The translations under genes and the position numbers were made by a program. A stretch of DNA of 64,000 nucleotides from Pectobacterium atrosepticum (GTDB lineage Bacteria > Pseudomonadota > Gammaproteobacteria > Enterobacterales > Enterobacteriaceae). Positions 1,535 through 48,346 of this stretch are shown one piece after another. The stretch spans positions 3,472,001 through 3,536,000 of the forward strand of contig CP036163.1 in NCBI GenBank assembly GCA_019056595.1. The letters run 5' to 3'. The notes under the pieces are model-generated. The model was given only the letters and a program-made list of their open reading frames with translations. It did not search any database and had not been told where the DNA came from. Numbering within the stretch: position 1 is the stretch's first letter; each line of letters opens with the position of its first letter.

Positions 1535-2506
1535 CTAGAAATCGCGCTGTACGGCTAAGTGGGCGAGTCCTTCAAGTGCCATACGGTATGGCGTTTTCGG
1601 TAGCAGTTGTAGCGCGTTGATCGCTTTATCTGCCTCTTCTTCGGCACGTTGACGCGTGTAATCAAGTGAACCGCATTGCTGCATCGCGGCAAGAATAGGC
1701 TCCAGCAGGTGACGCCCGTTTCCTTCTTCAATCGCCTGACGAATTAGCGAACTCTGTTCCGCATTACCCTGACGCATAGCGTGTAACAGTGGTAGCGTTG
1801 GCTTGCCTTCATTGAGGTCATCGCCCGTGTTTTTGCCCAACGTTTTACCGTCTGCACTGTAGTCAAGCAGATCGTCAATTAACTGGAACGCGGTGCCAAG
1901 ATAGCGTCCATAGTCCTGAAGTGCTTTTTCTTGCTCTGGCGTAGCGCCTGCAAGGATGGATGAGGATTGAGCTGCGGCTTCAAATAAACGCGCCGTTTTG
2001 CTGTAAATGACGCGCATATAACTTTCTTCTGTGATATCCGGGTCGTTGCAATTCATTAACTGCAAGACCTCCCCTTCAGCAATCACGTTGACTGCTTCTG
2101 ACATCAGTGCCAGCACGCGTAAGGATTCGAGGCTGGTCATCATCTGGAAGGCGCGGGTATAGATAAAGTCCCCAACCAGCACGCTCGCCGCGTTGCCGAA
2201 GGCCGCATTCGCTGTCGCTTTACCTCGGCGCATGTCGGATTCATCTACCACATCATCATGCAGCAGCGTTGCGGTATGGATAAATTCGATCAGTGCGGCG
2301 ACGGTGACGTGTTTATCACCGTTATAGGCAAGGGCTCTGGCTGCAAGCACAGCAATCATTGGACGTATACGTTTCCCACCACCGCTAATGATGTAATGAC
2401 CAAGCTGGTTGATCAAAACGACGTCGGAATTCAGTTGTTCAAGAATGACTTTATTAACAGCCGCCATATCCTGTGTGGTTAATGTTGTAATTTGTTCTAG
2501 ATTCAT
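1535..2506 (-). CDS. ispB: Octaprenyl diphosphate synthase IspB
   Basis: Condenses isopentenyl diphosphate units onto farnesyl diphosphate to make the C40 side chain of ubiquinone and menaquinone. The 323-residue protein has both aspartate-rich prenyltransferase motifs: DDVVD at residues 84-88 (with RRGKATANAA following) and LIDDLLDYSAD near residue 210, plus the GGGKRIRP substrate motif at 42-49. The chosen ATG (MNLEQITTL) matches the E. coli start; the reading frame extends four codons upstream to a TTG. It is divergent from rplU, as in E. coli, and essential in that species. Full length, no anomaly seen. Confidence 0.97.
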   Translation of the reverse strand: MNLEQITTLTTQDMAAVNKVILEQLNSDVVLINQLGHYIISGGGKRIRPMIAVLAARALAYNGDKHVTVAALIEFIHTATLLHDDVVDESDMRRGKATANAAFGNAASVLVGDFIYTRAFQMMTSLESLRVLALMSEAVNVIAEGEVLQLMNCNDPDITEESYMRVIYSKTARLFEAAAQSSSILAGATPEQEKALQDYGRYLGTAFQLIDDLLDYSADGKTLGKNTGDDLNEGKPTLPLLHAMRQGNAEQSSLIRQAIEEGNGRHLLEPILAAMQQCGSLDYTRQRAEEEADKAINALQLLPKTPYRMALEGLAHLAVQRDF

Positions 2507-2661
2507 GGTTTGTGCCAACGTATGTCTTCAACACTGCCGTAAGATTGCTGCTGCATATCGGCAAGACGAAACTGATTGCGCCGATTGTACTTGAAAAATG
2601 AGAGAGATAAACGGCAGTTCATACGTTGTATTCTTTTTCTTCACATCCGTTGATTATGCAC

Positions 2662-2690
2662 TTGTCATCCTCAGTATTTTTGCGTAGAAT
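2662..2690 (+). promoter_or_regulatory. Sigma-70 promoter for rplU-rpmA
   Basis: TTGTCA (2662-2667), a 17-bp spacer and TAGAAT (2685-2690) precede a GC-rich discriminator (TCGCGCCC), as is common for growth-rate-controlled ribosomal promoters. The start of transcription would lie near 2697, about 65 bases before the rplU start codon. Confidence 0.75.
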
Positions 2691-2726
2691 TCGCGCCCTA
2701 TTATGAATATTTATAGCGCGCTCTGA

Positions 2727-3074
<348 letters not shown>

Positions 3075-3093
3075 GACTAGGAGAGCGGATTAA

Positions 3094-3351
3094 ATGGCAC
3101 ACAAGAAAGCTGGCGGTTCAACCCGTAACGGTCGTGACTCTAACGCACAACGTCTGGGCGTAAAACGTTTTGGCGGCGAAAGTGTATTGGCTGGTAACAT
3201 CATCGTTCGTCAACGTGGCACCAAATTCCACGCAGGAACTAATGTTGGCTGCGGGAAAGACCATACTCTGTTTGCTTTGACTGACGGTAAAGTTCAGTTT
3301 GAAGTTAAAGGCCCAAAAAACCGTAAATTTATCAGCATCGTTGCTGAATAA
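3094..3351 (+). CDS. rpmA: 50S ribosomal protein L27
   Basis: An 85-residue protein beginning [20 protein letters not shown], with the conserved body [20 protein letters not shown] and [17 protein letters not shown]. The flexible N-terminus of L27 reaches the peptidyl-transferase centre in known ribosome structures. AGGAGAG lies just upstream of the ATG. The gene is followed at once by a strong terminator, so rplU-rpmA is a two-gene unit. Confidence 0.98.
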
Positions 3352-3377
3352 TTTTTCGCGTTAGGTCTTACGGATTT

Positions 3378-3406
3378 AAGCCCCGCAATTCTTTGCGGGG
3401 CTTTTT
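3378..3406 (+). terminator. Intrinsic terminator of rplU-rpmA
   Basis: AAGCCCCGCA (3378-3387) pairs with TGCGGGGCTT (3394-3403) around a six-base loop and runs into a T tract. It separates rpmA from yhbE. Confidence 0.9.
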
Positions 3407-3440
3407 ACATTCTGATTCTGAGTAAACCATCTGGATAAGT

Positions 3441-4403
3441 ATGAATACTAAACAACAGACGGGTATCGGTCTCTGTCTGGCGCTTACCACGGCTGTTTGT
3501 TGGGGGGCGTTGCCGATAGCCATGAAACAGGTTCTGGTAGTTATGGAGCCTTCTACTATTGTTTGGTATCGCTTTCTTATCGCGTCGATTGGACTCGGCA
3601 TTATTCTGTCATCCCGTAAGAAGTTACCGCCAATGCGAGTTTTCCGTCATCGGCGTTGGTGGGTTCTGCTGCTGATTGCGACGGCGGGCTTATTAGGTAA
3701 TTTTGTTTTCTTTAGCTCGTCTCTGCAATATCTGAGTCCGACAGCGTCTCAGGTTATTGGACAGCTTTCCCCAGTTGGTATGATGTTCGCCAGCGTACTA
3801 ATCCTTAAGGAAAAGATGCGTGGCACGCAGATCATTGGGGCAATCATGCTGATCTGTGGTCTGATTTTATTCTTTAATACCAGCCTGATTGAGATTTTTA
3901 CCCGGTTAACAGACTACACGCTGGGTGTACTGCTCGGCGTTTGCGCATCGGCAGTATGGGTATCTTATGGTGTAGCGCAGAAAGTCCTGTTACGGCGTCT
4001 GACATCGCAGCAGATTCTGTTTCTGCTCTATGTTCTGTGTGTTGTCTTTATCACGCCTTTTGCCAAGCCTGACGTTATTTTCCAGCTTAGCGGGTGGCAG
4101 TTTATCTGCCTACTATTCTGCGGCGCGAATACATTGATTGGGTATGGCGCGCTAGCGGAGGCGATGGCTCGCTGGCAAGCGTCACAGGTTAGCGCGGTTA
4201 TTACCTTGACGCCGCTGTTTACACTGTTGTTTTCTGATTTACTTGCGTTGGGGTGGCCGAGTTTTTTCGCTGCGCCGGTGCTGAACTGGATTGGCTATTT
4301 TGGCGCGTTTGTCGTTGTTGCTGGTGCTATGTTTTCCGCTATCGGACACCGTTTCCTCCCCGGAAAAAAAGAACCAGTACCACCATTGATGGCGCAAAAG
4401 TAG
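3441..4403 (+). CDS. yhbE: EamA/DMT-family inner-membrane transporter YhbE
   Basis: A 320-residue hydrophobic protein with about ten predicted membrane segments in two EamA repeats (first repeat roughly residues 8-145, second 155-295). Diagnostic stretches include TTAVCWGALPIAMKQVL, LQYLSPTASQVIGQLSPVG and YGALAEAMARWQASQVSAVI, closely following E. coli YhbE in sequence and place between rpmA and obgE. Members of this superfamily export or import metabolites; the substrate of YhbE is not known. The start at 3441 matches the homologue (MNTKQQTGIGLCLALTT). Confidence 0.93.
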   Translation: MNTKQQTGIGLCLALTTAVCWGALPIAMKQVLVVMEPSTIVWYRFLIASIGLGIILSSRKKLPPMRVFRHRRWWVLLLIATAGLLGNFVFFSSSLQYLSPTASQVIGQLSPVGMMFASVLILKEKMRGTQIIGAIMLICGLILFFNTSLIEIFTRLTDYTLGVLLGVCASAVWVSYGVAQKVLLRRLTSQQILFLLYVLCVVFITPFAKPDVIFQLSGWQFICLLFCGANTLIGYGALAEAMARWQASQVSAVITLTPLFTLLFSDLLALGWPSFFAAPVLNWIGYFGAFVVVAGAMFSAIGHRFLPGKKEPVPPLMAQK

Positions 4404-4630
4404 ATTAAGAAAAGCGTATTGCGGCAGGTCACTGCCATCTTTTGACATTTTGCATGCGTTGTTTATTTTTAATACAGATGAAATTATTGAGGCAGGCAGG
4501 TACAATCCTGCTCCTTTGCTGGAATGCGTTCTAGTGCGTCAGTTTTTTAATGGTGAGTAGAAATACGCTACATGCCTTAAAATCAAAAAGTTACGCCAAA
4601 GAGAACCAATAACAAGCCTAAAACACGTAG

Positions 4631-5836
<1,206 letters not shown>

Positions 5837-5868
5837 TTCATTCTTCTGCTAGTCAATTTTCGCCTATC

Positions 5869-5903
5869 ACGGCCTTACCCTGTCAGGGTAAGGCCGTATT
5901 CTT
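5869..5903. terminator. Bidirectional terminator between obgE and dacB
   Basis: ACGGCCTTACCCTG pairs with CAGGGTAAGGCCGT as a near-perfect hairpin (5869-5897), followed on the plus strand by ATTCTTAT. It sits between two convergent genes and can serve both. Confidence 0.8.
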
Positions 5904-5906
5904 ATA

Positions 5907-7340
5907 TTAGTTGCTCTGATAAATGTCTTTGTAGAGACGGCTTTCAAATCTCACCAGAGGGACGCGACGTGCGCGCTGGTCTTCTGGCGGTACGGCATAG
6001 CCAGACAGGAACTGGACAAATGCCATACGCTGGCCGCTCGCGGTGGTAATGAACCCCGCCAGATTGTATACGCCCTGTAACGCCCCAGTTTTAGCCGAAA
6101 CTTTGCCGTCAACGCCAGCTTCATGCAGGCCGCCACGATAGCGTAGCGTGCCGTCATAGCCGGAAAGTGGGAGCATCGTGATGTAATTCAGCTCATTATC
6201 ATGCTGCGCGATGTACTGTAATACCTGCATCATCGTTTCCGGTGAAATCAGGTTGTGCCGTGACAGACCTGAACCATCCACAACAATACTGTTTCCTAAA
6301 TCTACACCCGCCTTCTGCCTCAGGATCTGACGCACAGCATCGGCACCTGCACGCCATGTGCCTGGCACGCTAAAGCGCTCATGCCCAATGGTACGAAAAA
6401 CCGTATCGGCAATCATGTTGTCCGATTTTTTCAGCATGATAGTGAGCAGGTCGTGTAGCGGAGGCGATTGTGTCTGGGTTAGCACAGTCCCGGCTGGCCC
6501 CGGCTGCGTCTGGCGGCGCAAACTACCTTTAATGCGGATATCCGCCTGCTGAAGTTCATCTTTAACGATAGCGCCAGCATAGCTAGCCCCATCCTGAATC
6601 GCGAACGCCAACGGAAGTGGTTCTGTTCGCTGGGTTAGGCAGCCAGTGAGCGTAAAGCGATTCAATTCTCCGGGGACCACGTCCAGTTCGCAGTACTGGG
6701 CATCGGTAGATCCTTTAGCCAGCGTGCGCACCTCGCTGAACATCTGTACCGGATAATAGGATGCAACGCGGATAAAGGCGTTATCACCCGCTTTAGGCGC
6801 GCTGTAGAGTGAGACGGAAAAGCAGTTACGATCGACAATTGCAGCGCCCGGCGGGGCACTGAAACACTGTGTCATGTCGTTCCAAGGCCAGCCTGGTGCT
6901 TTGTCGTGACTGGCAAAAACGGAGGTATCGATTAGCACATCGCCTGCGATTTCCCGTATTCCTCGTTTCCTTAATTCCTGCACCATATTCCGTATTTGTT
7001 GGCGCTTCAGGGTCGGGTCACCGCTAAACCGTACGATCAGGTTGCCGTTTAGCAGGCTGCCGGTAACTGGGCCATGACTTTCCATCGTAGTGATGAATCG
7101 ATAATCCGGACCCAATTGCAGTAATGCAGCTAATGCGGTTATCACCTTTTGCGTACTGGCAGGAAGCGCCATTTGCTGGCTATTGAAGGCCATGCTGGGT
7201 GTTGTTGCGCCAACTTTTTGTACCAATAACGCCAAATTGGCGCCATCAGGCAAATATTGACGATGATCTTCAACAGAAGCTGCATTGGCATGCAGAACAA
7301 AAGCGCAGGCAAGTCCGGTAACAATCGATGAAAAACGCAT
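5907..7340 (-). CDS. dacB: D-alanyl-D-alanine carboxypeptidase/endopeptidase PBP4
   Basis: The 477-residue product equals E. coli PBP4 in length. A signal peptide (about residues 1-20, ending HANA) sends it to the periplasm. The three penicillin-binding active-site motifs are visible: STQK (Ser62-Lys65), SDN near 325 and KTG in VSAKTGALQG near 435. It trims and cleaves peptidoglycan cross-links and is non-essential in E. coli. It is divergent from greA, with 268 bp between, as in E. coli. No break or missing residue seen. Confidence 0.96.
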   Translation of the reverse strand: MRFSSIVTGLACAFVLHANAASVEDHRQYLPDGANLALLVQKVGATTPSMAFNSQQMALPASTQKVITALAALLQLGPDYRFITTMESHGPVTGSLLNGNLIVRFSGDPTLKRQQIRNMVQELRKRGIREIAGDVLIDTSVFASHDKAPGWPWNDMTQCFSAPPGAAIVDRNCFSVSLYSAPKAGDNAFIRVASYYPVQMFSEVRTLAKGSTDAQYCELDVVPGELNRFTLTGCLTQRTEPLPLAFAIQDGASYAGAIVKDELQQADIRIKGSLRRQTQPGPAGTVLTQTQSPPLHDLLTIMLKKSDNMIADTVFRTIGHERFSVPGTWRAGADAVRQILRQKAGVDLGNSIVVDGSGLSRHNLISPETMMQVLQYIAQHDNELNYITMLPLSGYDGTLRYRGGLHEAGVDGKVSAKTGALQGVYNLAGFITTASGQRMAFVQFLSGYAVPPEDQRARRVPLVRFESRLYKDIYQSN

Positions 7341-7608
7341 AATCTCAGCTAAGAACGGGGTAACGTGTGGTCATACTACGGCGCAATAAGGTCTAAAGTA
7401 AACGATGACCCTCATTGAACTCTGGGGTAAAATACGTATCAAAATGCAAAACCGCTGCTAGCCTGGATATTTTGTTCTGGGGCTGGTTGCTTTTGTTTTA
7501 TGTCCAGTGAGGACTGGCACGTTGCAGAGACTCCGTCGCCTTTGATTTTTAGCGCGTCAGGATGACGATTATTTGAGTCTTACGGACTTTTTTAGAGGTA
7601 TAGACAAT

Positions 7609-8088
7609 ATGAAACAATATCCGATGACGTTGCGTGGTGCTGAAAAATTGCGCGAAGAGCTTGATCATCTGAAATCTGTGCGCCGACCTGAGATTATTAC
7701 GGCGATTGCGGAAGCACGTGAGCACGGCGATCTGAAAGAAAATGCAGAATATCATGCTGCACGTGAGCAGCAGGGTTTCTGCGAAGGGCGTATTCAAGAC
7801 ATTGAAGCCAAACTGTCTAACGCGCAGATTATCGATGTTACGAAAATGGCCGCTAACAACGGGCGTGTCATTTTTGGTGCAACCGTGGCGGTGATGAATC
7901 TGGATAGCGAGGAAGAGCAAACCTACCGGATTGTTGGCGATGACGAAGCGGATTTTAAGCAAAATCTGATTTCTGTTAACTCTCCGATCGCGCGTGGCCT
8001 GATCGGTAAAGAACAAGATGATGTCGTTGTCATCCGTACGCCGGGCGGCGACGTGGAATACGAAGTACTGAAGGTCGAATATCTATAA
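7609..8088 (+). CDS. greA: Transcript-cleavage factor GreA
   Basis: A 159-residue protein starting [20 protein letters not shown]. The N-terminal coiled-coil (residues 1-75) carries the acidic tip [19 protein letters not shown], which enters the RNA-polymerase secondary channel to stimulate cleavage of backtracked RNA; the C-terminal globular domain binds polymerase ([18 protein letters not shown]). One residue longer than E. coli through TKMAANNGR. The ATG at 7609 with AGAGGT upstream fits the family start; the frame opens earlier at 7573 but that part is not conserved. Confidence 0.97.
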
Positions 8089-8135
8089 ATTTACCATTTT
8101 GTTGATTAAAACAGCAAAAATTGTAAAGAAAAGAA

Positions 8136-8156
8136 AAAGGCCGCTTGCGGCCTTTT
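8136..8156. terminator. Terminator between convergent greA and yhbY
   Basis: AAAGGCCGC and GCGGCCTTT form a compact hairpin with a T run on the plus strand and A-rich sequence before it, so it can stop transcription from both sides. Confidence 0.85.
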
Positions 8157-8215
8157 CTCTAACCGAGAGGCATGGCACCTTTCCGTTAAAGCTGAGTATC
8201 CTGAAATAAAAAGTG

Positions 8216-8509
8216 TTATCGTGGTAACACAATTTTACGTTCTTTCGCAGGGCGGTAGAGCACCAGCGTATGGCCGATGACCTGTACGTTAGCGGCACCC
8301 GTTTCACGAACAATCGCTTCAACAATCAAGGCTTTGGTTTCGCGATCTTCTGTCGCTACTTTTATCTTGATCAGTTCGTGATGCGCTAATGCTTGTTCGA
8401 TCTCAGCCAGAACACCTTCGGTGAGACCGTTATTACCTAGCATGACAACCGGTTTTAGCGGATGTGCCAAGCCTTTCAGGTGTTGTTTTTGTTTATTACT
8501 TAGGTTCAT
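8216..8509 (-). CDS. yhbY: CRM-domain RNA-binding protein YhbY
   Basis: A 97-residue protein identical in length to E. coli YhbY. It consists of one CRM domain, including the GxxG-type loop VMLGNNGLTEGVL and the strand ending VLYRPAKERKIVLPR. YhbY associates with pre-50S particles in E. coli. The start MNLSNKQKQHLKGLAHPLKP matches the family. It diverges from rlmE, another 50S-maturation gene, across about 140 bp. Confidence 0.95.
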   Translation of the reverse strand: MNLSNKQKQHLKGLAHPLKPVVMLGNNGLTEGVLAEIEQALAHHELIKIKVATEDRETKALIVEAIVRETGAANVQVIGHTLVLYRPAKERKIVLPR

Positions 8510-8653
8510 TGTCTTTTTTACTTAGGTTGGGATTGAAAACGGTTCATTCTACCGCCATCTCATGATTATAACCAATTTGACTGTTCTGATTGGTAATATG
8601 TGAGAAGTTTCTTCCCCACCACGAGCGTGTTACTGAGAATAGTTGGAAAATCG

Positions 8654-9283
8654 ATGGCGAATAAAAAGCGTTCTGCAAGCTCCAGTCGCTGGTTGCAGGA
8701 ACACTTTAGCGATAAATATGTGCTGCAGGCCCAGAAAAAAGGCCTGCGCTCACGTGCTTGGTTTAAACTTGACGAAATACAGCAGAGCGACAAACTGTTT
8801 AAACCCGGCATGACAGTTGTGGATTTAGGCGCAGCACCTGGTGGTTGGTCACAATATGTGGTCACGCAAATTGGTGGAAAGGGTCGAATTATCGCGTGTG
8901 ATATTTTACCGATGGATCCGATTGTTGGCGTCGATTTCCTGCAAGGGGACTTTCGTGATGAACTGGTCCTCAAAGCCTTGCTCGAAAGAGTTGGCGATAG
9001 CAAAGTTCAGGTGGTGATGTCTGACATGGCCCCTAACATGAGTGGTACACCAGCTGTTGATATTCCGAAATCGATGTATCTGGTTGAATTAGCACTTGGT
9101 ATGTGTCGGGATGTATTAGCGCCAGGCGGAAGTTTCCTGGTGAAAGTGTTTCAGGGAGAAGGCTTTGATGAATACCTGCGGGAAATTCGCTCCCTGTTTA
9201 CGAAGGTGAAAATTCGTAAACCAGACGCTTCACGTGCCCGGTCTCGTGAAGTGTATATTGTAGCGACAGGGCGCAAACTGTAG
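8654..9283 (+). CDS. rlmE: 23S rRNA 2'-O-ribose methyltransferase RlmE (FtsJ/RrmJ)
   Basis: The 209-residue enzyme methylates U2552 in the A-loop of 23S rRNA using S-adenosylmethionine. The SAM-binding motif [14 protein letters not shown] lies near residues 56-69, and the K-D-K-E catalytic set expected of FtsJ enzymes is consistent with Lys in RAWFKLDEI, Asp in [10 protein letters not shown], Lys in [10 protein letters not shown] and Glu in [10 protein letters not shown]. The start [17 protein letters not shown] at 8654 matches E. coli; the frame from 8600 is too long. It lies directly upstream of ftsH, as is usual. Confidence 0.97.
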
Positions 9284-9330
9284 TACCCTAACGCTGTTTT
9301 TTAACACAGTTGTAATATGAGGTTAATCCC

Positions 9331-11277
9331 TTGAGTGACATGGCGAAAAACCTAATTCTCTGGTTAGTCATCGCAGTTGTGCTGATGTCTGTTTTCCAGA
9401 GCTTTGGGCCCAGCGAGTCGAATGGCCGTAGGGTGGATTATTCAACCTTCTTGACCGAAGTGAATCAGGATCAGGTCCGTGAAGCACGTATTAACGGGCG
9501 TGAGATCAGTGTTATCAAAAAAGACAGCAACAGATACACGACTTACATTCCTGTCAATGACCCCAAGCTACTGGATAACCTGCTAACGAAGAACGTGAAA
9601 GTCGTTGGTGAACCACCGGAAGAGCCGAGTTTGTTGGCTTCTATCTTTATTTCCTGGTTCCCGATGCTGTTACTGATTGGTGTCTGGATCTTCTTCATGC
9701 GTCAAATGCAAGGCGGCGGCGGTAAAGGTGCCATGTCCTTCGGCAAGAGCAAAGCGCGTATGTTGACTGAAGATCAGATCAAGACGACGTTTGCTGATGT
9801 AGCCGGTTGCGACGAAGCGAAGGAAGAGGTTAGCGAGCTGGTCGAGTACCTGCGTGAACCTAGCCGTTTCCAGAAACTGGGTGGTAAAATTCCATCAGGC
9901 ATTTTGATGGTCGGGCCGCCGGGAACCGGTAAAACATTGCTGGCGAAAGCCATTGCCGGTGAAGCGAAAGTGCCTTTCTTTACGATTTCCGGTTCTGACT
10001 TCGTTGAAATGTTTGTCGGTGTCGGTGCCTCCCGTGTTCGTGACATGTTCGAACAGGCGAAGAAAGCTGCACCCTGCATCATCTTTATCGATGAAATCGA
10101 CGCCGTTGGCCGTCAACGTGGCGCAGGTTTAGGCGGTGGTCACGATGAACGTGAACAAACGCTGAACCAAATGCTGGTTGAGATGGACGGCTTTGAAGGC
10201 AACGAAGGCATTATTGTTATTGCGGCGACTAACCGTCCCGATGTTCTGGATCCCGCGTTGCTGCGTCCAGGCCGTTTTGACCGTCAGGTTGTTGTTGGTC
10301 TGCCGGATGTTCGCGGTCGTGAACAAATTCTGAAAGTCCATATGCGTCGCGTACCGCTATCTCCAGATATGGATGCGTCAGTTATCGCGCGTGGTACGCC
10401 AGGCTTCTCTGGTGCGGATTTGGCTAATCTGGTTAACGAAGCTGCATTGTTCGCTGCTCGTGGCAACAAACGTGTTGTTTCGATGGTCGAGTTCGAGAAA
10501 GCTAAAGACAAAATCATGATGGGTGCAGAGCGCCGCTCCATGGTAATGACGGAAAAGCAAAAAGAATCGACGGCGTATCATGAAGCCGGACACGCCATCA
10601 TCGGTCGTCTGGTGCCAGAGCACGATCCGGTACATAAAGTAACGATCATTCCGCGTGGTCGCGCACTAGGCGTAACGTTCTTCCTGCCTGAAGGGGATGC
10701 GATCAGCGCTAGCCGTCAGAAGCTGGAAAGCCAGATCTCTACGTTGTACGGCGGTCGACTGGCCGAAGAGATTATTTACGGCGTAGAACATGTCTCTACT
10801 GGCGCGTCCAATGACATCAAAGTCGCAACGTCGATTGCCCGTAACATGGTTACGCAGTGGGGCTTTTCTGAAAAACTCGGTCCATTGCTCTATGCGGAAG
10901 AAGACGGTGAAGTATTCCTCGGTCGCTCCGTAGCAAAAGCCAAGCACATGTCAGATGAAACGGCACGCATCATCGATCAGGAAGTGAAATCTCTGGTTGA
11001 ACGTAACTACTTGCGTGCTCGCGAACTGTTGATGGCAAATATGGACATCCTTCATTCAATGAAAGACGCGTTGATGAAGTATGAAACCATTGATGCGCCG
11101 CAGATCGATGACCTGATGGGACGTAAGAAAGATGTACGTCCGCCTGCGGGTTGGGAAGAGTCTCGCTCTGACAACGATTCTGGTAACGGTGGTGCACCTA
11201 AAGCCCCTACGCCTGTCGATGAGCTGCAAACGCCTAATCCAGATAACACAATGTCTGAGCAAGTGGACGACAAATAA
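9331..11277 (+). CDS. ftsH: Membrane-anchored ATP-dependent zinc protease FtsH
   Basis: A 648-residue AAA+ protease with two membrane segments (about 8-28 and 100-124), the ATPase Walker A GPPGTGKT near 195, Walker B FIDEID, the arginine-containing SRH segment, and the zinc-protease motif HEAGH near 420. It degrades LpxC, sigma-32 and unassembled SecY. I place the start at TTG 9331 because GAGG lies eight bases before it; the ATG at 9340 (MAKNLILW, the classical E. coli start) is too far from that site. Highly conserved except for the variable C-terminal tail. Confidence 0.97.
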
Positions 11278-11308
11278 TTCGCTCGTGATAGACATCTGTA
11301 ACGTTACG

Positions 11309-11336
11309 AAACCCCAGCTCAGGCTGGGGTTTTTTA
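11309..11336 (+). terminator. Intrinsic terminator after ftsH
   Basis: AACCCCAGC (11310-11318) pairs with GCTGGGGTT (11323-11331), with a tetraloop and a T tract of six. Confidence 0.9.
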
Positions 11337-11395
11337 CGAGTAATGTTCTTCAAATCATACTCCATGCTAACTACACCAGAATGCGGAGGTAAAAC

Positions 11396-12229
11396 ATGCA
11401 ACTGGTTGCCAGAGACTCAACGCTGGACCTTTCCTGTCCACACGTCATGGGCATTCTTAATGTTACGCCGGACTCTTTTTCCGATGGCGGCAAGCACAAC
11501 AAGTTCGATACCGCATTACTGCACGTTCAAGAGATGATTACCGCTGGTGCGACCCTGATCGATATTGGCGGTGAATCGACGCGCCCCGGTGCGGATGAGG
11601 TGAGCACAGAAGAAGAGCTGGAACGCGTGGTGCCTGTGATCGAAGCTATTGCTAAACGTTTTGACGTATGGATTTCGGTCGATACTTCAAAACCGGAAGT
11701 GATGATGGCATCGGCGCTGGCGGGAGCGCACCTGATTAATGATATCCGCGCTTTGCAAGAGCCTGGTGCTCTGGAGGCTGCGGCGGCAACAGGTTTGCCA
11801 GTGTGCCTGATGCACATGCAGGGTATGCCGAGAACCATGCAGCACAAACCTCATTATGATGATCTGATGCAGGACATCGGGAATTTCTTACAACAGCAGA
11901 TTGAACGCTGTGTGAGCGCAAATATTCCGAAAAGTAAGCTATTGCTGGATCCTGGGTTCGGATTCGGTAAGAATCTTGCCCATAATTACGCGCTTCTGGC
12001 TCGCCTGAGCGAGTTACATCGTTTTGAACTGCCGCTTCTGGTTGGCATGTCGAGGAAGTCCATGATTGGACAGCTCCTCAATGTACCGCCTGCACAGCGT
12101 GTTCATGGTAGCGTCGCTTGCGCAGTGATCGCTGCGATGCAGGGTGCACAGATTATTCGCGTTCACGATGTTAAAGAAACGGCTGATGCCATGCGCATTG
12201 TTGAGGCCACCCTTTCTGCGAAGGAATAA
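11396..12229 (+). CDS. folP: Dihydropteroate synthase
   Basis: This 277-residue TIM-barrel enzyme joins 4-aminobenzoate to hydroxymethyl-dihydropterin diphosphate in folate synthesis and is the sulfonamide target. Signature 1 appears as [15 protein letters not shown] (residues 17-31) and signature 2 as [12 protein letters not shown] (near 59-70); the pterin-site DPGFGFGK and the MSRKS loop follow. GCGGAGG stands before the ATG. It precedes glmM by seven bases, so the two are probably co-transcribed. Confidence 0.97.
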
Positions 12230-12236
12230 AAACAAG

Positions 12237-13574
12237 ATGAGTAACCGCAAATATTTTGGTACCGATGGTATACGTGGCAAGGTTGGTGATACGCCGATTA
12301 CACCTGACTTTGTGCTTAAACTGGGTTGGGCTGCTGGGAAAGTGCTAGCGCGACATGGTTCTCGTAAAATTATTATCGGCAAAGATACCCGTATTTCTGG
12401 CTATATGTTGGAGTCTGCTCTGGAAGCTGGGCTGGCCGCTGCCGGTTTGTCGGCTTCTTTTACCGGCCCGATGCCTACGCCTGCGGTTGCTTATCTCACT
12501 CGAACATTCCGTGCTGAAGCAGGTATCGTTATTTCTGCTTCTCACAATCCTTATTATGACAACGGTATTAAATTCTTCTCGATTGACGGCACAAAGCTAC
12601 CTGATGACGTGGAGGAAGCCATTGAAGCTGAGATGGAAAAACCGCTGACGTGTGTTGAGTCTTCAGAGTTAGGTAAAGCGAGTCGCATTGTTGACGCTGC
12701 CGGGCGCTATATCGAATTTTGTAAGGGGACTTTCCCGGGCGAACTGAGTCTTAATGGCTTAAAGATTGTCGTCGATTGTGCCAATGGCGCTACCTACCAT
12801 ATTGCGCCCAGTGTTTTGCGTGAGCTTGGTGCTAAAGTCATCGCGATTGGCTGTGAGCCGGATGGCATGAATATCAACGAAGAGTGCGGTGCAACGGATG
12901 TCAGACAGCTACAGGCTCGCGTGCTGGCTGAAAAGGCGGATGTTGGGCTGGCATTCGACGGCGATGGCGATCGACTCATTATGGTCGACCATTTGGGTAA
13001 CAAGGTCGATGGCGATCAGATTCTGTATATCATCGCCCGCGAAGGCTTACGTCAGGGACAACTACGCGGCGGTGCGGTAGGTACCCTGATGAGTAACATG
13101 GGGCTTGAGGTCGCGTTAAAGCAACTCGGTATCCCGTTTGCTCGTGCCAAGGTGGGCGACCGCTATGTGTTAGAAATGATGCAGACAAAAGGGTGGCGCA
13201 TTGGTGCGGAAAACTCCGGCCATGTCATCCTGTTAGATAAAACCACGACGGGCGATGGTGTGATTGCCGGTTTGCAAGTACTTACTGCGATAGTGAAAAA
13301 CCATATGAGTCTGCATGATTTATGCAGCGGTATGAAGTTATTCCCACAGATTCTGGTTAACGTGCGGTTTACGGGTGAAAACGATCCGCTGGAAGACAAA
13401 AGTGTGCAGCAGATTACGCAGGATGTAGAAAAAGAGTTGGCCGGACGCGGGCGAGTATTACTGCGTAAATCTGGTACTGAACCACTTATCCGCGTGATGG
13501 TTGAAGGTGAACACGAAGAGACAGTAATAGCGCAGGCGAATCGTATTGCTGATGCAGTGAAAGCCGTCAGTTGA
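12237..13574 (+). CDS. glmM: Phosphoglucosamine mutase GlmM
   Basis: Converts glucosamine-6-phosphate to glucosamine-1-phosphate for peptidoglycan and lipopolysaccharide precursors. The 445-residue protein carries the phosphorylated active serine in VISASHNP (Ser102), the metal-binding DGDGDR loop near 241-246, the sugar-binding GAENSGH and the phosphate-binding [12 protein letters not shown] near the C-terminus. The ATG at 12237 gives the E. coli length; the frame that opens at 12144 lies inside folP and is rejected. Confidence 0.97.
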
Positions 13575-13605
13575 GGTTTTTTTGATTCACCAATCAGGTA
13601 GATAA

Positions 13606-13647
13606 GGCTTTCGAGATAGACCTTGTGTCGAAAGCCGCTGTTTTTTT
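13606..13647 (+). terminator. Possible terminator after glmM
   Basis: GGCTTTCGA (13606-13614) pairs with TCGAAAGCC (13628-13636) around a 13-base loop; a run of seven T follows after GCTG. The interrupted T tract makes it weaker than the others here. Confidence 0.5.
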
Positions 13648-13824
13648 CTGCAATCAACCTGTGGTGACCAAATTACCCTTGCGTACGTTACATCCTTTGG
13701 TTAGTATTCAGACCCGCTTGATAAGGGATGTACCATACATCCTGCTTAGCGGAATGACGCGCGGTTTACCGCCAGAATATAGCATCTCCATGAATCATGG
13801 GGAAAACGGTTAACGGGTACGACT

Positions 13825-14157
13825 ATGTACGAAGCTCTGTTAGTAATTTTCCTGTTAGTGTCGATCGGGTTAGTTGCCTTGATCATGCTTCAGCAGGGTA
13901 AAGGTGCTGATATGGGAGCCTCGTTCGGAGCAGGTGCTTCTGCCACTTTGTTCGGTTCGAGCGGCTCTAGTAATTTCATGACCCGCATGACGGCGATACT
14001 GGCGACCCTGTTCTTCATTATCAGTCTTATTCTGGGCAACTTGAGTACGCTGCAGAAAAAAGGCGGTGCATGGGATAACCTGAGCCAGCCAGAAAAAGTC
14101 GAGCAGACGACAACGCCTGTTGCGCCTTCAACGCCGGCAAGTGACATTCCGAAGTAA
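13825..14157 (+). CDS. secG: Sec translocase subunit SecG
   Basis: A 110-residue inner-membrane protein with two membrane helices (about 3-22 and 52-72) separated by the conserved cytosolic loop QQGKGADMGASFGAGAS, followed by a variable proline- and threonine-rich tail. SecG aids protein translocation through SecYE. The gene sits 24 bases ahead of tRNA-Leu(GAG), the arrangement of E. coli secG-leuU. Confidence 0.96.
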   Translation: MYEALLVIFLLVSIGLVALIMLQQGKGADMGASFGAGASATLFGSSGSSNFMTRMTAILATLFFIISLILGNLSTLQKKGGAWDNLSQPEKVEQTTTPVAPSTPASDIPK

Positions 14158-14181
14158 GCGTTTTAAAGCAGTAATTGTGAT

Positions 14182-14268
14182 GCCGTGGTGGTGGAATTGG
14201 TAGACACGCTACCTTGAGGTGGTAGTGCCCGATTGGGCTTACGGGTTCAAGTCCCGTCCTCGGTACCA
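14182..14268 (+). tRNA. leuU: tRNA-Leu(GAG)
   Basis: An 87-nt class II tRNA with encoded CCA (14266-14268), anticodon GAG at 14216-14218, a long variable arm and the T-arm ACGGGTTCAAGTCCCGT. It corresponds to E. coli leuU. The acceptor stem GCCGTGG/CCTCGGT has a T-T mismatch at pair 5:68, where E. coli has A-U; all other pairs are normal. Confidence 0.95.
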
Positions 14269-14306: not shown

Positions 14307-14328
14307 TCTTTAATTTACTGTCTCAGCC

Positions 14329-14929
14329 TTACAGGCGCACCAACTGCTTGCCAAAGTGTTTTCTGTCTAATAAGTCGATAAAGGCTTGAGGCGCGTTCTC
14401 TATTCCCTCAATAATATTCTCCCGATATTTCAATCGTCCTTTCTCAACGGCATCGAGTAGCCAAATATCGGCTTCCGCATTACTACTTTGGGTTTGGCTA
14501 TTTTATTCAGGCCAAAATATGCGGAACGTCCCAGTGTTCCTGCTGCCCCAAAAAAAATAGAAGGCGACAACGTCGTCGGCAGTACGCGATGAGTAATAAA
14601 ATCCTGAGGTGTGCCAACATAGTATTTCTGCCGGCCTGAAAAGGTGAATACGCAGTCTCCAAACTGAAATTTTGGATTTTTCGTTGCTACGATATTACCT
14701 ATTGTTTCTCCTTAAATAACCTATCCCGGCTTGATAGGGCTAACAAAGGCCGTATTTTGCTGAGTCGAGTGCGTGTGTATTGGTCAATAGATAGCCACTT
14801 ATTTTCAACTATGTATTCGCCGGATTGTAACGCATTGATCTGGCGCTCTTCGAACCTGAAATTCTCTAACTGGGCTGGGCCATCAGGATGGTGAGCGAGT
14901 ACGATTAGTTTATTTGTTAACGGGTTCAT
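14329..14929 (-). pseudogene. Remnant of a CurA-like NADP-dependent oxidoreductase
   Basis: Three in-order pieces of a zinc-type (MDR) NADP-dependent oxidoreductase are readable on the minus strand. The N-terminus starts MNPLTNKLIVLAHHPDGPAQ (14929). A middle piece reads LSPSIFFGAAGTLGRSAYFG around 14530-14570. The C-terminus, ending GRLKYRENIIEGIENAPQAF and then FGKQLVRL-stop at 14329, is in another frame. The NADP-binding Rossmann core is deleted and frames shift between pieces; about 200 codons remain against the roughly 345 of intact CurA-type enzymes. Non-functional. Confidence 0.8.
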
Positions 14930-14969
14930 AATATCCCCTATATTTATCATTCATTACGCATGGCTTGAT

Positions 14970-15205
14970 GGCTGGTTCAGGCAGCGTTATCGTGCGCATG
15001 TGAAGACCAGCGATATTTTGGCCATTTGAGGCTGAAAATGACGATGGCTTTTATCAGATAGGTCAAAATCCACACCAATGAGACTTCGTTCTATATTTTG
15101 GTGTAGCGTGGGGTGCCATAGTTAGGAAGTGTTTTCAGTCTTGGCGTAGCTTATTCCGCTAATGTCTGTATGACCTGACGCCCGAGCATGCTGTAAATGC
15201 TGAAG
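14970..15205 (-). other. Decayed membrane-protein scrap
   Basis: The minus strand reads two hydrophobic stretches in separate frames, SGAMSTVIIFSIYSMLGRQV (around 15165-15225) and VSLVWILTYLIKAIVIFSLK (around 15030-15090), divided by stops. They look like membrane helices of a lost transporter, perhaps an exporter once linked to the adjacent peptide synthetase. The family cannot be named with confidence. Confidence 0.35.
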
Positions 15206-15209
15206 ATAA

Positions 15210-16372
15210 TCACGGTGGACATTGCGCCGCTGACGGATAAAAAGACGTACCGGTAAATAAGGCGACATTCTGCGCAAAATACGCCAGACGTTCAGCTTCA
15301 TTCATGTTTGCTGAACCGTCGATGTTGATCTCTGGCGTAGGCTGGTCCAACACTAATACGGTGGGTATCATGCCTTTTTCCGCGAACTGCTGCGCCATTT
15401 CAAAAGCGATAGTTGCGCCGAGAGACCATCCTCCGAGTACCAGACGAGATTAATGAACGATGTCACCAGCCTGTGAAAGATAGAAAGCGCAATCGTTTTG
15501 ATATCGGCGTTATAAGGTTGGTTAACGCTAAAATTGGGCACCTGAATACCGTAGATCGGATAGCTTTCGCCCAATTTACGCGCCAGCCTGGAATGACACA
15601 GCACGTTACCGCCCGCTGGGTGGATAGAAGCAAGGTGGGGTTATCTTCAGGCTGCCCACGATTGAGAGTCACCCTTGCTGTTTGAGTCTGGGATCCTTTT
15701 TCTTCAATCACGCGGGCCAACTGGGTAATGCTGCTGTTTTCAAACAACTGCCCCAGAGACAGGGATGTCCCAAAATGCTGATTAACGCTGAGGATAAGTT
15801 TTAACGCGCTGAGAGAATTCCCGCCAAGCGTGAGGAAGCTCTCCTGCGTATCAACGGTATCGTTTTGTAAAATATCGCGATAAATCTTATGCAGGTTGTG
15901 TTAGTGCTGATTTTCTGGCGCATGGAACGAGACATTTTTTTCCACCGAAGGCAGAGGTAACGCGGCATAATTTATCTTACCGCTGGCGGTTAATTGCTTA
16001 GCATAAGCTTGATGGTGGTGCTGGAGAATAATGCATTGCTGTAGTTCATAGTAAACAGCAAACCGCCATTATCTCTATCTTCTTCTATCCATAAATTCAG
16101 ATCTACTTTGGCACTGCCATAATCGACTTTTAGCAGTTTATATTTTATTCCGCTATTTCGACTGTGAAAATGAGGCAATACCTGATACGGCAATATTTCC
16201 TGAAACAGTGGGTTTATTTGGGGGGTACGAGTATAGGTGATTTCATCCAGAATATAATTGAATGGCACATCCTGATACTTCATGGTTTCTTCACATTCTA
16301 TGCGGGCAGCATCAATCAGATGAATAATACTAGCGTATCTCCCTGCAACAGGCGAAAGTAATTCTATATTTA
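15210..16372 (-). pseudogene. Remnant of a non-ribosomal peptide synthetase terminal module (C-PCP-TE)
   Basis: On the minus strand: the C-terminal half of a condensation domain (HLIDAARIECEETMKYQDVP, 15990-16340); directly joined, the A10 end motif of an adenylation domain (LTASGKINYAALPLP, near 15970-16010) with the rest of that domain deleted; a peptidyl carrier domain with the phosphopantetheine site LGGNSL (near 15800-15820); and a thioesterase with the nucleophile motif GGWSLGA (near 15410-15430). At least two frameshifts and several stops interrupt it, so it cannot make product. It is the tail of a formerly larger synthetase gene. Confidence 0.8.
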
Positions 16373-16785
16373 CGGCATAAAAGTCCTTCCACGACTTTTT
16401 CACCATCTTTACCCCACCGTGGAAACTGTTCGGTAGCGGCGTTATAGTCGCCCTGATTAAACCGGCGTAATAATGTCGATTTCTCCAAGTTTTCTACTCC
16501 TAGATAGTAAGTAAATGAGGTTAATGCGCCAAATTTATTTCCATTGAGATCAAATTTTACGTACTTCTGAACTCCAGTTTTCGCTGTTTTTAAGTTTTTA
16601 CATAATAGAAATTCAGCCTCCTGAGAGGTGGTCTCATTATCAAAATTTTCATTTTTCAGTATTAAATGTCCATATCCAATGGTCCATCTTCCTGCTGTGT
16701 CAAGATACCTTGTTAATCTCAGACCTTCAACGTTATTAGTCAGATCAAGGCCAGCCTAGTTGATTGTATTTGGAATTTTAGTCAT
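16372..16785 (-). pseudogene. GH24 phage-type lysozyme with amber codon, 3' truncated
   Basis: From ATG at 16785 the frame reads MTKIPNTIN, then TAG at 16758-16756, then AGLDLTNNVEGLRLTRYLDT and AGRWTIGYGH, and later STLLRRFNQGDYNAATEQFP and KVVEGLLCR. The E-x8-D-x5-T catalytic signature of T4/P21-type lysozymes is intact (Glu in VEG, Asp in YLD, Thr in WTIGYGH). Relatives have NQAG here, so TAG probably arose from CAG by one transition. The frame holds to about 16372, where sequence passes into the synthetase remnant in another frame, losing the last residues. A good ribosome site (AGAGGAA) precedes the ATG. Confidence 0.75.
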
Positions 16786-16789
16786 TTTT

Positions 16790-17142
16790 TTATTCCTCTT
16801 GGGTTATTTGGGGGAGAATAAGATTAGTATATTCATCAATTAACCGCATAATGCTTTCTAGTGGATCGATCGAAGTAAACTGCATTTCTATATCGACGTG
16901 CTGACTATTTCTTCCCTTTTTATCTTCTCCAGCATCAATCCTCGTGGAGTAGAAAGGGCGACCAGGGCAGCTCGACGTGGTGCCGAGGATCGAGCTGAAT
17001 CGTAATTATCTTTGGGGTTAACGCGCCATCTGCATCACGTTCAAAAAAAAGGATCTAGCGTTTGTTGATATTGATGAGCAATAAATTGATTGGCGGCGGT
17101 AGCCGCGTGCTGCATGCAGCGAGTAATGTCTGCAAATGTCAT
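16790..17142 (-). pseudogene. Frameshifted DUF2589-like gene
   Basis: Starting at ATG 17142 the minus strand reads MTFADITRCMQHAATAANQF, ending at a run of eight T near 17041. After one shift it reads FERDADGALTPKIITIQLDP; after another VALSTPRGLMLEKIK; after a third HVDIEMQFTSIDPLESIMRL, with a stop at 16790. The pattern (helical N-terminus with a repeated MQHA/ANQF motif, then a beta-rich middle and the LP-VAL-PRGLM-LE signature) resembles DUF2589 proteins, whose role I do not know. Four bases separate it from the lysozyme start, so the two were an operon. Confidence 0.55.
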
Positions 17143-17488
17143 TGCCTTTGATGACGTAACGTGATTTTCTCTTGGATATTATCCACATTATCTGGTTTTT
17201 TATTTTTCCCCATAATTCAATTTTTGAATGAAATTTTCTCTCCTTATCTTATTTTTAGTTGCTAAGCGTAAGCAGCCTAGAGGGAAATAAATGATGATTT
17301 TAGAAAGTGTTAATAGCTAATAAAATAGGGTCACATCAGTCATTGTGTTGGATATGTCATGCAATGTGTCATAGGCCATTTATTCATGGTTTAAGAATTC
17401 ATTGCGTTGGTTTTTTATACATTTATGAAATTATTACGCCATTATGGTTTATTTCGAATACCATTATTGTTGATAATGGTATTCCTCC
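17143..17488. other. AT-rich gap without a supported gene
   Basis: Low-GC sequence that probably held the promoter of the DUF2589-like/lysozyme pair and the lost 5' half of the LuxR-type regulator. On the plus strand near 17430-17500 a frame reads HYGLFRIPLLLIMVFLRGFL, which weakly recalls the end of a response-regulator receiver domain; stops prevent any longer reading. Confidence 0.4.
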
Positions 17489-17839
17489 GTGGTTTCTTAT
17501 GTGAAACACCATGTTATTGGAGTCATTCTTAAAACATCACCCTTCGATTCCATTGCTCAGGCATTAAAAACAGTATCGATGGGTATGGTCTGCTTGCCGG
17601 ATGATGGGGTGGTTTATGAGGGATGGAGTGTAGATAACAGCGTAAAAGGCAAACTCCGTGAAAGACAACATGAAGTTTTGCAACTGATTGTATCAGGCGC
17701 TTCTAATAAGCAAATTAGTCGGACATTAAACATCAGCGCAGGAACCGTTAAGTCACATTTGGAGTCGATTTTCAGACGGCTTAATGTGCGTAATAGAACG
17801 CAGGCTGCGATCGTGTTGTTAGAAGAAGAACGAAGATAA
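17489..17839 (+). pseudogene. Truncated LuxR/NarL-type response regulator
   Basis: The open part encodes 116 residues. A linker-like segment (SPFDSIAQALKTVSMGMVCL) leads to a complete LuxR-type helix-turn-helix (residues about 55-115: LRERQHEVLQLIVSGASNK, ISAGTVKSHLESIFRRLNV). Full-length family members carry a receiver domain of about 120 residues in front; here only traces are visible upstream. The open frame begins at a GTG with no clear ribosome site. Possibly still translated as a bare DNA-binding domain, but decay is more likely given its surroundings. Confidence 0.65.
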
Positions 17840-18045
17840 GTTTTATTCATTGCATTATTTATATTTAGTTATTGTCTGATTTAAGCATTAGGGAATCTTC
17901 ATCGCGTTATCTCTTTCTGCCGCCCTAGCAGTGAGTCTTTCCTCAATGGTCGGCCAGCTTTGTGGCTAGCGTGACAGCACAAGATCGGTCCACAAAAAGT
18001 GGAATATCTATTGCGTGATGGCCGCTGCCAGGCGACCCGCGGATG

Positions 18046-18074
18046 TTGACAAAGGAACGTATTCCGCGTATAAA
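18046..18074 (+). promoter_or_regulatory. Strong sigma-70 promoter for metY-rimP-nusA-infB
   Basis: TTGACA (18046-18051), an exact 17-bp spacer and TATAAA (18069-18074). Transcription would begin near 18081, about 70 bases before tRNA-fMet. Upstream, 17840-18045 holds no gene I can support. Confidence 0.8.
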
Positions 18075-18149
18075 AATTGCCTTCGAACCAATCCTATGGA
18101 TAACTTGCATTTATGCAGTTGTCAGCGTAGTATTTGCCACGTTTTCGGA

Positions 18150-18226
<77 letters not shown>

Positions 18227-47934: not shown

Positions 47935-48021
47935 GCGAAGGTGGCGGAATTGGTAGACGCGCTAGCTTCAGGTGTTAGTGTTCTTACGGACGTGAGGGTT
48001 CAAGTCCCTCTCTTCGCACCA
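47935..48021 (+). tRNA. tRNA-Leu(CAG), copy 1
   Basis: 87 nt with encoded CCA, anticodon CAG at 47969-47971 and a long variable arm. First of three tandem copies, equivalent to E. coli leuQPV. Confidence 0.97.
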
Positions 48022-48098
48022 ACATCACTACAACGGTTCTGGTTTGTCGAACCGAAGCAGTAATCAGTATTGCGTAACCAGAAATACATGACAGAGTT

Positions 48099-48185
48099 GC
48101 GAAGGTGGCGGAATTGGTAGACGCGCTAGCTTCAGGTGTTAGTGTTCTTACGGACGTGAGGGTTCAAGTCCCTCTCTTCGCACCA
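48099..48185 (+). tRNA. tRNA-Leu(CAG), copy 2
   Basis: Identical in sequence to copy 1. It lies 77 bases downstream of it in the same transcript. Confidence 0.97.
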
Positions 48186-48259
48186 TGTCGTGATAGGTTT
48201 ACCGCATAAGACAATTATTGCATAAAATAATGCTGTATAAGACAAGCAACGTTCTCAGT

Positions 48260-48346
48260 GCGAAGGTGGCGGAATTGGTAGACGCGCTAGCTTCAGGTGT
48301 TAGTGTCCTTACGGACGTGAGGGTTCAAGTCCCTCTCTTCGCACCA
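48260..48346 (+). tRNA. tRNA-Leu(CAG), copy 3
   Basis: As copies 1 and 2 except one base in the variable arm (GTCC instead of GTTC), which makes the variable stem GTCC/GGAC fully Watson-Crick. No convincing intrinsic terminator follows. Confidence 0.97.

What the first reader, a model, noticed from the sequence alone, without database searches (positions are those of the whole stretch)
14307..18149. Accessory graveyard bracketed by two tRNA genes
Between tRNA-Leu(GAG) and tRNA-fMet there are at least five broken genes of unrelated origin: oxidoreductase, membrane protein, peptide synthetase tail, phage-type lysozyme with a DUF2589-like gene, and a LuxR regulator. In E. coli this slot between leuU and metY holds argG. 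The sequence shows repeated deletion and frameshift with no intact mobile element. This suggests a recombination hotspot where relatives may carry the intact versions.
Basis: partly seen in the sequence, partly recalled or inferred. Interest (0 to 1): 0.7.

Follow-up and report, generated by a model that had tools for sequence, protein, structure and literature searches.

The report
Worn-down peptide-polyketide gene island
The broken genes between these two tRNA genes are not junk from many sources but the worn remains of one roughly 21-kilobase gene island that many relatives still carry, in which a constant set of lysozyme-linked genes sits beside exchangeable sets of genes for making small molecules.

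Summary
The observation and the gene names are right: between tRNA-Leu(GAG) 14182-14268 and tRNA-fMet 18150-18226 lie broken pieces of an oxidoreductase, a membrane protein, a peptide synthetase, a lysozyme, a DUF2589 gene and a LuxR regulator. 'Unrelated origin' is wrong: all match, in order and strand, one ~21 kb island between the same tRNAs in 13 of 24 held congeners (P. peruviense, P. carotovorum and others). The window kept ~3.9 kb; eight deletions removed ~17 kb. By my reading of the genus tree the island is ancestral and was lost or replaced about eight times. 'Hotspot' is partly right: two congeners carry an azole-peptide (SagB/SagD-type) cluster instead, one VgrG/Hcp/Rhs genes. More interesting than the graveyard: a constant cassette (two DUF2589 genes, phage-type lysozyme, membrane protein, LuxR) stays while cargo changes; other genera have similar cassettes, mostly without those clusters, and four of ten loci compared have an apparently secreted protein of one group, one member of which hits an RNase A-like toxin family. 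A LuxR-controlled release or competition cassette with exchangeable payload is testable but unproven.

The parts
14182..14268 (+). tRNA-Leu(GAG), leuU, left border of the island
   Evidence: ARAGORN
14332..14478 (-). 3' end of the zinc-type oxidoreductase gene (residues 296-344 of 344)
   Evidence: tblastn 98% identity; colinear DNA match
14479..14486 (.). breakpoint 1, 411-415 bp missing inside the oxidoreductase gene
   Evidence: 13 relatives
14487..14947 (-). 5' part of the oxidoreductase gene (residues 1-154), with a frame change and internal stops
   Evidence: Pfam ADH_N_2
14980..15246 (-). remnant of the 208-aa multi-span membrane protein (residues 92-208), with internal stops
15028..15044 (.). 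breakpoint 2, 84 bp missing inside the membrane-protein gene
   Evidence: 84 bp in all 13 relatives
15230..15247 (.). breakpoint 3, 708-720 bp missing (thioesterase end and membrane-protein start)
15240..16002 (-). peptide synthetase: carrier and thioesterase part (residues 978-1232 of 1356), frame changes and stops
15993..16019 (.). breakpoint 4, 1549-1558 bp missing (adenylation region)
15993..16334 (-). peptide synthetase: part of the condensation domain (residues 351-464)
16332..16373 (-). further short scrap of the same condensation domain, after a 421 bp deletion (breakpoint 5)
   Evidence: DNA match to G022 and G020 only of 13 relatives; tblastn E 0.10 only
16371..16373 (.). breakpoint 6, 13.3-13.4 kb missing where resolved (G022, G020): rest of the synthetase, polyketide synthase, 120-aa, carrier, adenylation, DUF2589b, A-PCP-C and 186-aa membrane protein genes
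16369..16785 (-). phage-type lysozyme remnant (residues 1-139 of 150), one internal stop
   Evidence: tblastn 76%; Pfam Phage_lysozyme in intact copy
16784..17234 (-). DUF2589a remnant in three frames, with internal stops
   Evidence: Pfam DUF2589 in intact copy
16918..16932 (.). breakpoint 7, 112-121 bp missing inside DUF2589a
17487..17506 (.). breakpoint 8, about 438 bp missing (430-453 by relative), removing the start of LuxR
17489..17839 (+). LuxR-type regulator, C-terminal 114 of 204 residues with the DNA-binding domain whole; front half lost
   Evidence: tblastn 95%; Pfam GerE
18150..18226 (+). tRNA-fMet, metY, right border of the island
   Evidence: ARAGORN

Best explanation
SHOWN: the interval is the eroded remnant of a single ~21 kb island that sits between leuU and metY in 13 of 24 held congeners: a hybrid peptide synthetase-polyketide synthase cluster joined to a cassette of two DUF2589 genes, a phage-type lysozyme, a small membrane protein and a divergent LuxR regulator. 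Eight internal deletions (84 bp to over 13 kb, ~17 kb in all) plus frame breaks inactivated it in place. INFERRED: the island is ancestral to the genus and was lost or replaced repeatedly because its product is dispensable or costly; in intact relatives LuxR controls a small-molecule pathway, and the lysozyme/DUF2589/membrane genes help to release or deliver the product or resist it.
For: Colinear same-strand DNA matches of all fragments to one island in 13 genomes; all 13 island genes (14 probes, two of them for one polyketide synthase gene) have matches in all 13 genomes, with C-A-PCP-TE, KS-AT-KR-DH-ACP, A, PCP and A-PCP-C architecture in G017; deletion sizes agree across relatives (411-415, 84, 708-720, 1549-1558, 112-121 and 430-453 bp); the nearest genome on the tree, G017 (P. 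peruviense), has long open frames throughout; Brenneria salicis has cassette and NRPS-side genes with LuxR followed by rimP-nusA-infB; the window's genome has no DUF2589 match and its matches to the polyketide synthase front and the A-PCP-C protein are at most 38% and 37% identical.
Against: The functional half is inference: no product, expression or lysis data. Short direct repeats at breakpoints are weak: ambiguity ranges of 10, 8 and 5 bp at three, 2-4 bp at three, none at two against G022, and 6 instead of 10 against G017. The fifth deletion is resolved in only two of 13 relatives. Strains of the same species were not available, so when the deletions happened is unknown. The tree node joining the window to G017 has 92/91 support and six forks are open.
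Confidence: 0.93

Rival explanations
1. One reading: separate insertions of unrelated genes, each later broken, collected at a recombination hotspot.
For: The slot holds different genes in several congeners: azole-peptide cluster in G006/G007, VgrG/Hcp/Rhs plus MFS and GH43 in G009, integrase fragment plus acyltransferase/thioesterase scraps in G016, an ORF read by eye as a transposase in G005.
Against: All fragments in the window match a single island in order and strand.
Confidence: 0.03
2. Assembly or sequencing artefact produced the breaks.
For: No reads were available; single-base frame breaks cannot be checked.
Against: The genome is held as 2 contigs and rated 100% complete; eight separate deletions of up to 13 kb are not typical errors, and no close copies of three missing proteins tested were found elsewhere in the assembly.
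Confidence: 0.03
3. Not fully dead: the LuxR C-terminal half (17489-17839) keeps an open frame with a whole DNA-binding domain and may still act as a truncated regulator.
For: 95% identical over residues 91-204 with no internal stop; GerE domain whole.
Against: Its front half and its target operon are gone; a recent loss would also leave an open frame.
Confidence: 0.1

Closest known systems
Hybrid NRPS/type I PKS biosynthetic clusters (product here unknown)
   Same: Domain set C-A-PCP-TE, KS-AT-KR-DH-ACP, stand-alone A and PCP, A-PCP-C
   Different: Among the best 25 NCBIfam matches listed per protein no whole-pathway model reached its cut-off; the general adenylation-domain and KR-prefix models did (the front of the polyketide synthase was not scanned there). 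A DUF2589 gene lies about 100 bp upstream of the stand-alone A gene on the same strand
TOMM / linear azol(in)e peptide clusters (SagBCD type), in G006 and G007 at the same locus
   Same: In G006 the SagB and SagD models and the leader-binding model TIGR03882 are over cut-off, with 79-93% identical relatives in G007; a precursor-like ORF with a Cys-rich tail, 143 aa in G006 and 119 aa in G007
   Different: Beside the DUF2589-lysozyme-LuxR cassette and a C70-type cysteine peptidase; SagC model TIGR03603 below its cut-off
Holin/endolysin release systems (type 10 secretion, colicin lysis) - recalled
   Same: A phage-type endolysin beside small membrane proteins and a cargo
   Different: No family hit for the 186-aa membrane protein in Pfam, NCBIfam or PHROGs; DUF2589 has no counterpart there (recalled); lysis not tested
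tRNA-associated genomic islands
   Same: Variable content between two tRNA genes; Arm-DNA-bind integrase fragment beside leuU in G016, with a related DNA stretch in G009
   Different: No integrase among the G017 island proteins scanned, and the island looks vertically inherited

Membership tests
Hybrid NRPS-PKS biosynthetic cluster (ancestral form of the window locus) | Condensation, adenylation and carrier domains plus ketosynthase and acyltransferase in one locus | tested here: met
   in the intact relative G017; the window keeps only C, PCP and TE parts
Hybrid NRPS-PKS biosynthetic cluster (ancestral form of the window locus) | A functional cluster in the window itself | tested here: not met
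   eight deletions and frame breaks
Hybrid NRPS-PKS biosynthetic cluster (ancestral form of the window locus) | A known product | not testable with these tools
   no metabolite data
Collection of unrelated pseudogenes | Fragments derive from different loci | tested here: not met
   colinear with one island
tRNA integration hotspot | Different cargo at the same site in relatives | tested here: met
tRNA integration hotspot | Integrase and duplicated tRNA end (att) with the island | tested here: inconclusive
   integrase fragment in G016 and related DNA in G009; att repeats were not searched for
Lysis-type release cassette | Endolysin | tested here: met
   Phage_lysozyme in intact copy; PHROG endolysin
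Lysis-type release cassette | Holin and spanin | tested here: inconclusive
   186-aa membrane protein, three hydrophobic spans, no family hit

The most novel reading that the evidence does not exclude
The two DUF2589 genes, lysozyme, membrane protein and LuxR form an undescribed proteobacterial release or competition cassette with exchangeable payload: an NRPS-PKS product or a SagB/SagD-type azole peptide in Pectobacterium, a secreted RNase A-like toxin in other genera. The window is one payload version caught after decay.
Probability: 0.3. Interest if true: 0.75.

Novelty: new member of a known kind. Interest (0 to 1): 0.42.

Why it matters
It corrects a tempting reading: pseudogenes that look like a random pile can be one cluster eroded in place, shown only by comparison. 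It locates a peptide-polyketide cluster of unknown product and an azole-peptide cluster as alternatives at one chromosomal address in soft-rot bacteria, and points to DUF2589, a usually paired and well conserved family named in one paper of the library searched, as part of a cassette that can be tested by gene removal.

Tried and rejected
Independent insertions: rejected by colinearity. Phage origin of the lysozyme/DUF2589 genes: DUF2589b has no match at E 1e-5 in 50,697 phage records, and neither DUF2589 protein has a PHROG. DUF2589b does occur in 12 IMG/VR contigs: three (L127-L129) carry LuxR, lysozyme and membrane-protein relatives as well, and an integrase was seen in L127; nine (L130-L138) have the DUF2589 pair without a lysozyme match. 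It occurs in 4 of 72,556 plasmid records. So the direction of transfer is open. Defence system: no PADLOC hit for the eight proteins tested. Structures of the two DUF2589 proteins: AlphaFold models were poor (mean pLDDT 54.5 for DUF2589a, 41.0 for DUF2589b), so no fold search was run. Microhomology as proof of mechanism: too weak (its chance figures use exact matches between two stretches of one relative, its observed figures use equally good breakpoints, so the two are not strictly comparable). PDB sequence matches of two adenylation proteins gave only general NRPS relatives, gramicidin synthase first. Literature: 'DUF2589' is in 1 paper, seen in the search listing only; no paper held Pectobacterium with leuU and 'genomic island', or with YcaO and nonribosomal; the broader searches were seen as listings. 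PMC10991766 (passages seen) reports an azole-peptide cluster in P. betavasculorum; its place is not given in the passages seen. PMC6963963 and PMC8045196 (passages seen) do not describe this island in those passages.
Full report
Observation. ARAGORN places tRNA-Leu(GAG) at 14182-14268 and tRNA-fMet at 18150-18226. In the 3.9 kb between them the longest listed ORF is 138 aa. Among ten ORFs scanned, Pfam recognises an oxidoreductase N-terminus, part of a condensation domain and a LuxR-type DNA-binding domain.

One island, not many. The window lies in a 5.04 Mb genome of 2 contigs. A search of the interval against the 24 other held genomes of the genus gave matches in all, in some only to the flanks and tRNA genes. 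I fetched the leuU-metY intervals; 22 are in one piece, G010 and G019 are not. In thirteen of 24 (G002, G003, G004, G008, G012, G013, G017, G018, G020, G021, G022, G023, G024) the stretch that is 4.1 kb in the window spans 21.2-22.7 kb (coordinates), and the window's fragments match it in the same order and strand. Eight of the 15 genomes with the LuxR gene could be named through contig lengths: G017 P. peruviense, G004 P. carotovorum, G022 P. zantedeschiae, G013 P. brasiliense, G024 P. aroidearum, G006 P. betavasculorum, and G021 and G008 as Pectobacterium sp..

Intact anatomy (G017, from metY to leuU): LuxR (divergent), DUF2589a, phage-type lysozyme, 186-aa membrane protein, an A-PCP-C synthetase on the other strand, DUF2589b, stand-alone adenylation protein, carrier protein, 120-aa protein, KS-AT-KR-DH-ACP polyketide synthase, C-A-PCP-TE synthetase, 208-aa membrane protein, oxidoreductase: 13 genes. 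Fourteen probes for these 13 genes all match in all 13 genomes; G021 for many genes and G020 for two give only partial best matches, so they too may be decaying. The window keeps remains of 6 of the 13 genes; a further 29% match to the polyketide synthase lies in the synthetase's carrier part and is taken as a paralogue.

How the window is broken. Against the intact island the window shows eight deletions: 411-415, 84, 708-720, 1549-1558, 421, 13,299-13,430, 112-121 and 430-453 bp. The fifth is resolved only against G022 and G020; for the other 11 relatives the sixth gap includes it and reads 13.7-15.2 kb. Summed against G022 they come to about 17 kb. Against G022 the ambiguity range at the breakpoints is 10, 8 and 5 bp at three, 2-4 bp at three and 0 at two; G017 gives 6 instead of 10. 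This fits ordinary illegitimate deletion but does not prove it. DUF2589 has no match in the window's genome, and the matches there to the polyketide synthase front and the A-PCP-C protein are at most 38% and 37% identical, so they belong to other clusters.

History. A tree of the adjacent nusA-infB DNA, with Brenneria salicis added and the root at the midpoint, puts the window beside G017 (support 92/91; 14 of 23 inner branches well supported, 6 forks open). The NRPS-PKS state is scattered over the genus. In B. salicis the cassette and the NRPS-side genes within the contig are present, LuxR being followed by rimP-nusA-infB. G336, of another genus, carries relatives of the same genes at 51-83% identity; its place in the chromosome was not checked. 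So the island is most simply ancestral. By my reading, genomes without it fall into eight groups: G000, G005, G006, G007, G010, G016, G019 and the five-genome group G001, G009, G011, G014, G015. In that group G001 and G015 keep an oxidoreductase tail by protein match and G001, G011, G014 and G015 by DNA; G001, G011 and G015 also have weak matches in the LuxR region. In G010 leuU and metY are 44 kb apart on opposite strands.

Other cargo. G006 and G007, not sisters, keep LuxR, both DUF2589 genes, lysozyme and the membrane protein. Beside them G006 has SagB- and SagD-type proteins and a leader-binding protein over cut-off, a TPR protein, and a C70-type cysteine peptidase, with 79-93% identical relatives in G007, and both have a precursor-like ORF with a Cys-rich tail. 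The likeness of that tail to streptolysin-type precursors is recalled, not tested. G009 holds VgrG, Hcp, an Rhs/PAAR protein, an MFS transporter and a GH43 enzyme. G016 holds an integrase fragment and acyltransferase and thioesterase scraps.

The constant cassette. In a draw of 295 genomes of the family, 13 have DUF2589, each with two matches; a lysozyme relative lies in the ~3.5 kb loci around them in 12 of 13, G062 being the exception. In the genus 17 of 25 genomes have DUF2589: 16 with two matches, G021 with one; those of G005 and G015 lie elsewhere than leuU-metY. In a phylum-wide draw 8 of 398 have it, 7 with two matches; against my reading, none of the seven outside the genus showed the lysozyme in its ~3.5 kb loci. 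I read neighbourhoods of 11 of the 13 family genomes (G017 was known; G334 was not fetched): in eight, DUF2589b is 66-78% identical to that of G017 and lies with DUF2589a and lysozyme relatives, and seven of these eight have a LuxR relative over nearly its full length; G162 and G005 have a distant pair (about 30%) with a lysozyme, G062 (25%) has none. Of the eight, only G336 has NRPS-PKS relatives. Burkholderia stagnalis has relatives of LuxR (30%), DUF2589b (71%), DUF2589a (45%) and lysozyme (54%). Ten cassette loci outside the leuU-metY site, two of them near-identical, were compared: an apparently secreted ORF of about 160 aa in 7, a cysteine-peptidase-looking ORF (by eye) in 4, relatives of the 186-aa membrane protein in 7, a second small membrane protein in 6, and an apparently secreted ORF of about 175 aa in 4. 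One of these four (L127) was scanned and hits PF18431, 'Bacterial CdiA-CT RNAse A domain', over cut-off.

Mechanism. Shown: one island, eroded in place; a constant cassette with differing neighbours. Inferred: LuxR controls production; lysozyme with a membrane protein opens the wall or releases product; the DUF2589 proteins act as a pair. Against: no holin or spanin family hit, no lysozyme beside DUF2589 in the distant genomes, no expression data, and neighbours in a variable slot can be chance. I give this reading 0.3.

Verdict. The graveyard is ordinary decay of one cluster; the cassette it reveals is worth a test.

Noticed in passing
L046 (G006, P. betavasculorum) 4639-11157 and L047 (G007): SagB/SagD-type azole-peptide cluster with C70-type peptidase and a Cys-rich-tailed precursor-like ORF, in place of the NRPS-PKS genes.
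   Followed up: partly
L127 5188-5721, relatives in L121, L122, L128: Apparently secreted ~175-aa ORF beside the DUF2589-lysozyme cassette; the L127 copy hits the bacterial RNase A-like (CdiA-CT) family.
   Followed up: partly
L048 (G009) 2280-14224: VgrG, Hcp and Rhs/PAAR genes plus MFS and GH43 genes in the same leuU-metY slot.
   Followed up: no
L053, L054, L052 (G010): leuU and metY are 44 kb apart on opposite strands; a lysozyme relative (81%) sits alone at about 553 kb.
   Followed up: no
L050 (G016) 901-2430: Arm-DNA-bind integrase fragment beside leuU and scraps of an acyltransferase and a thioesterase.
   Followed up: no
L088 (P. versatile KC01) 8132-10612: LuxR relative (41%) and 186-aa membrane protein relative (53%) without any DUF2589 match in the locus: perhaps another decayed cassette.
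   Followed up: no
L130-L138 (IMG/VR contigs): DUF2589b/DUF2589a pairs without a lysozyme match on contigs classed as viral.
   Followed up: no
G000:C2:3893852-3907205 and 4504799-4549984: Other large PKS and NRPS genes in the window's genome, only distantly related to this island.
   Followed up: no
window 47935-48346: Three tRNA-Leu(CAG) genes in tandem.
   Followed up: no
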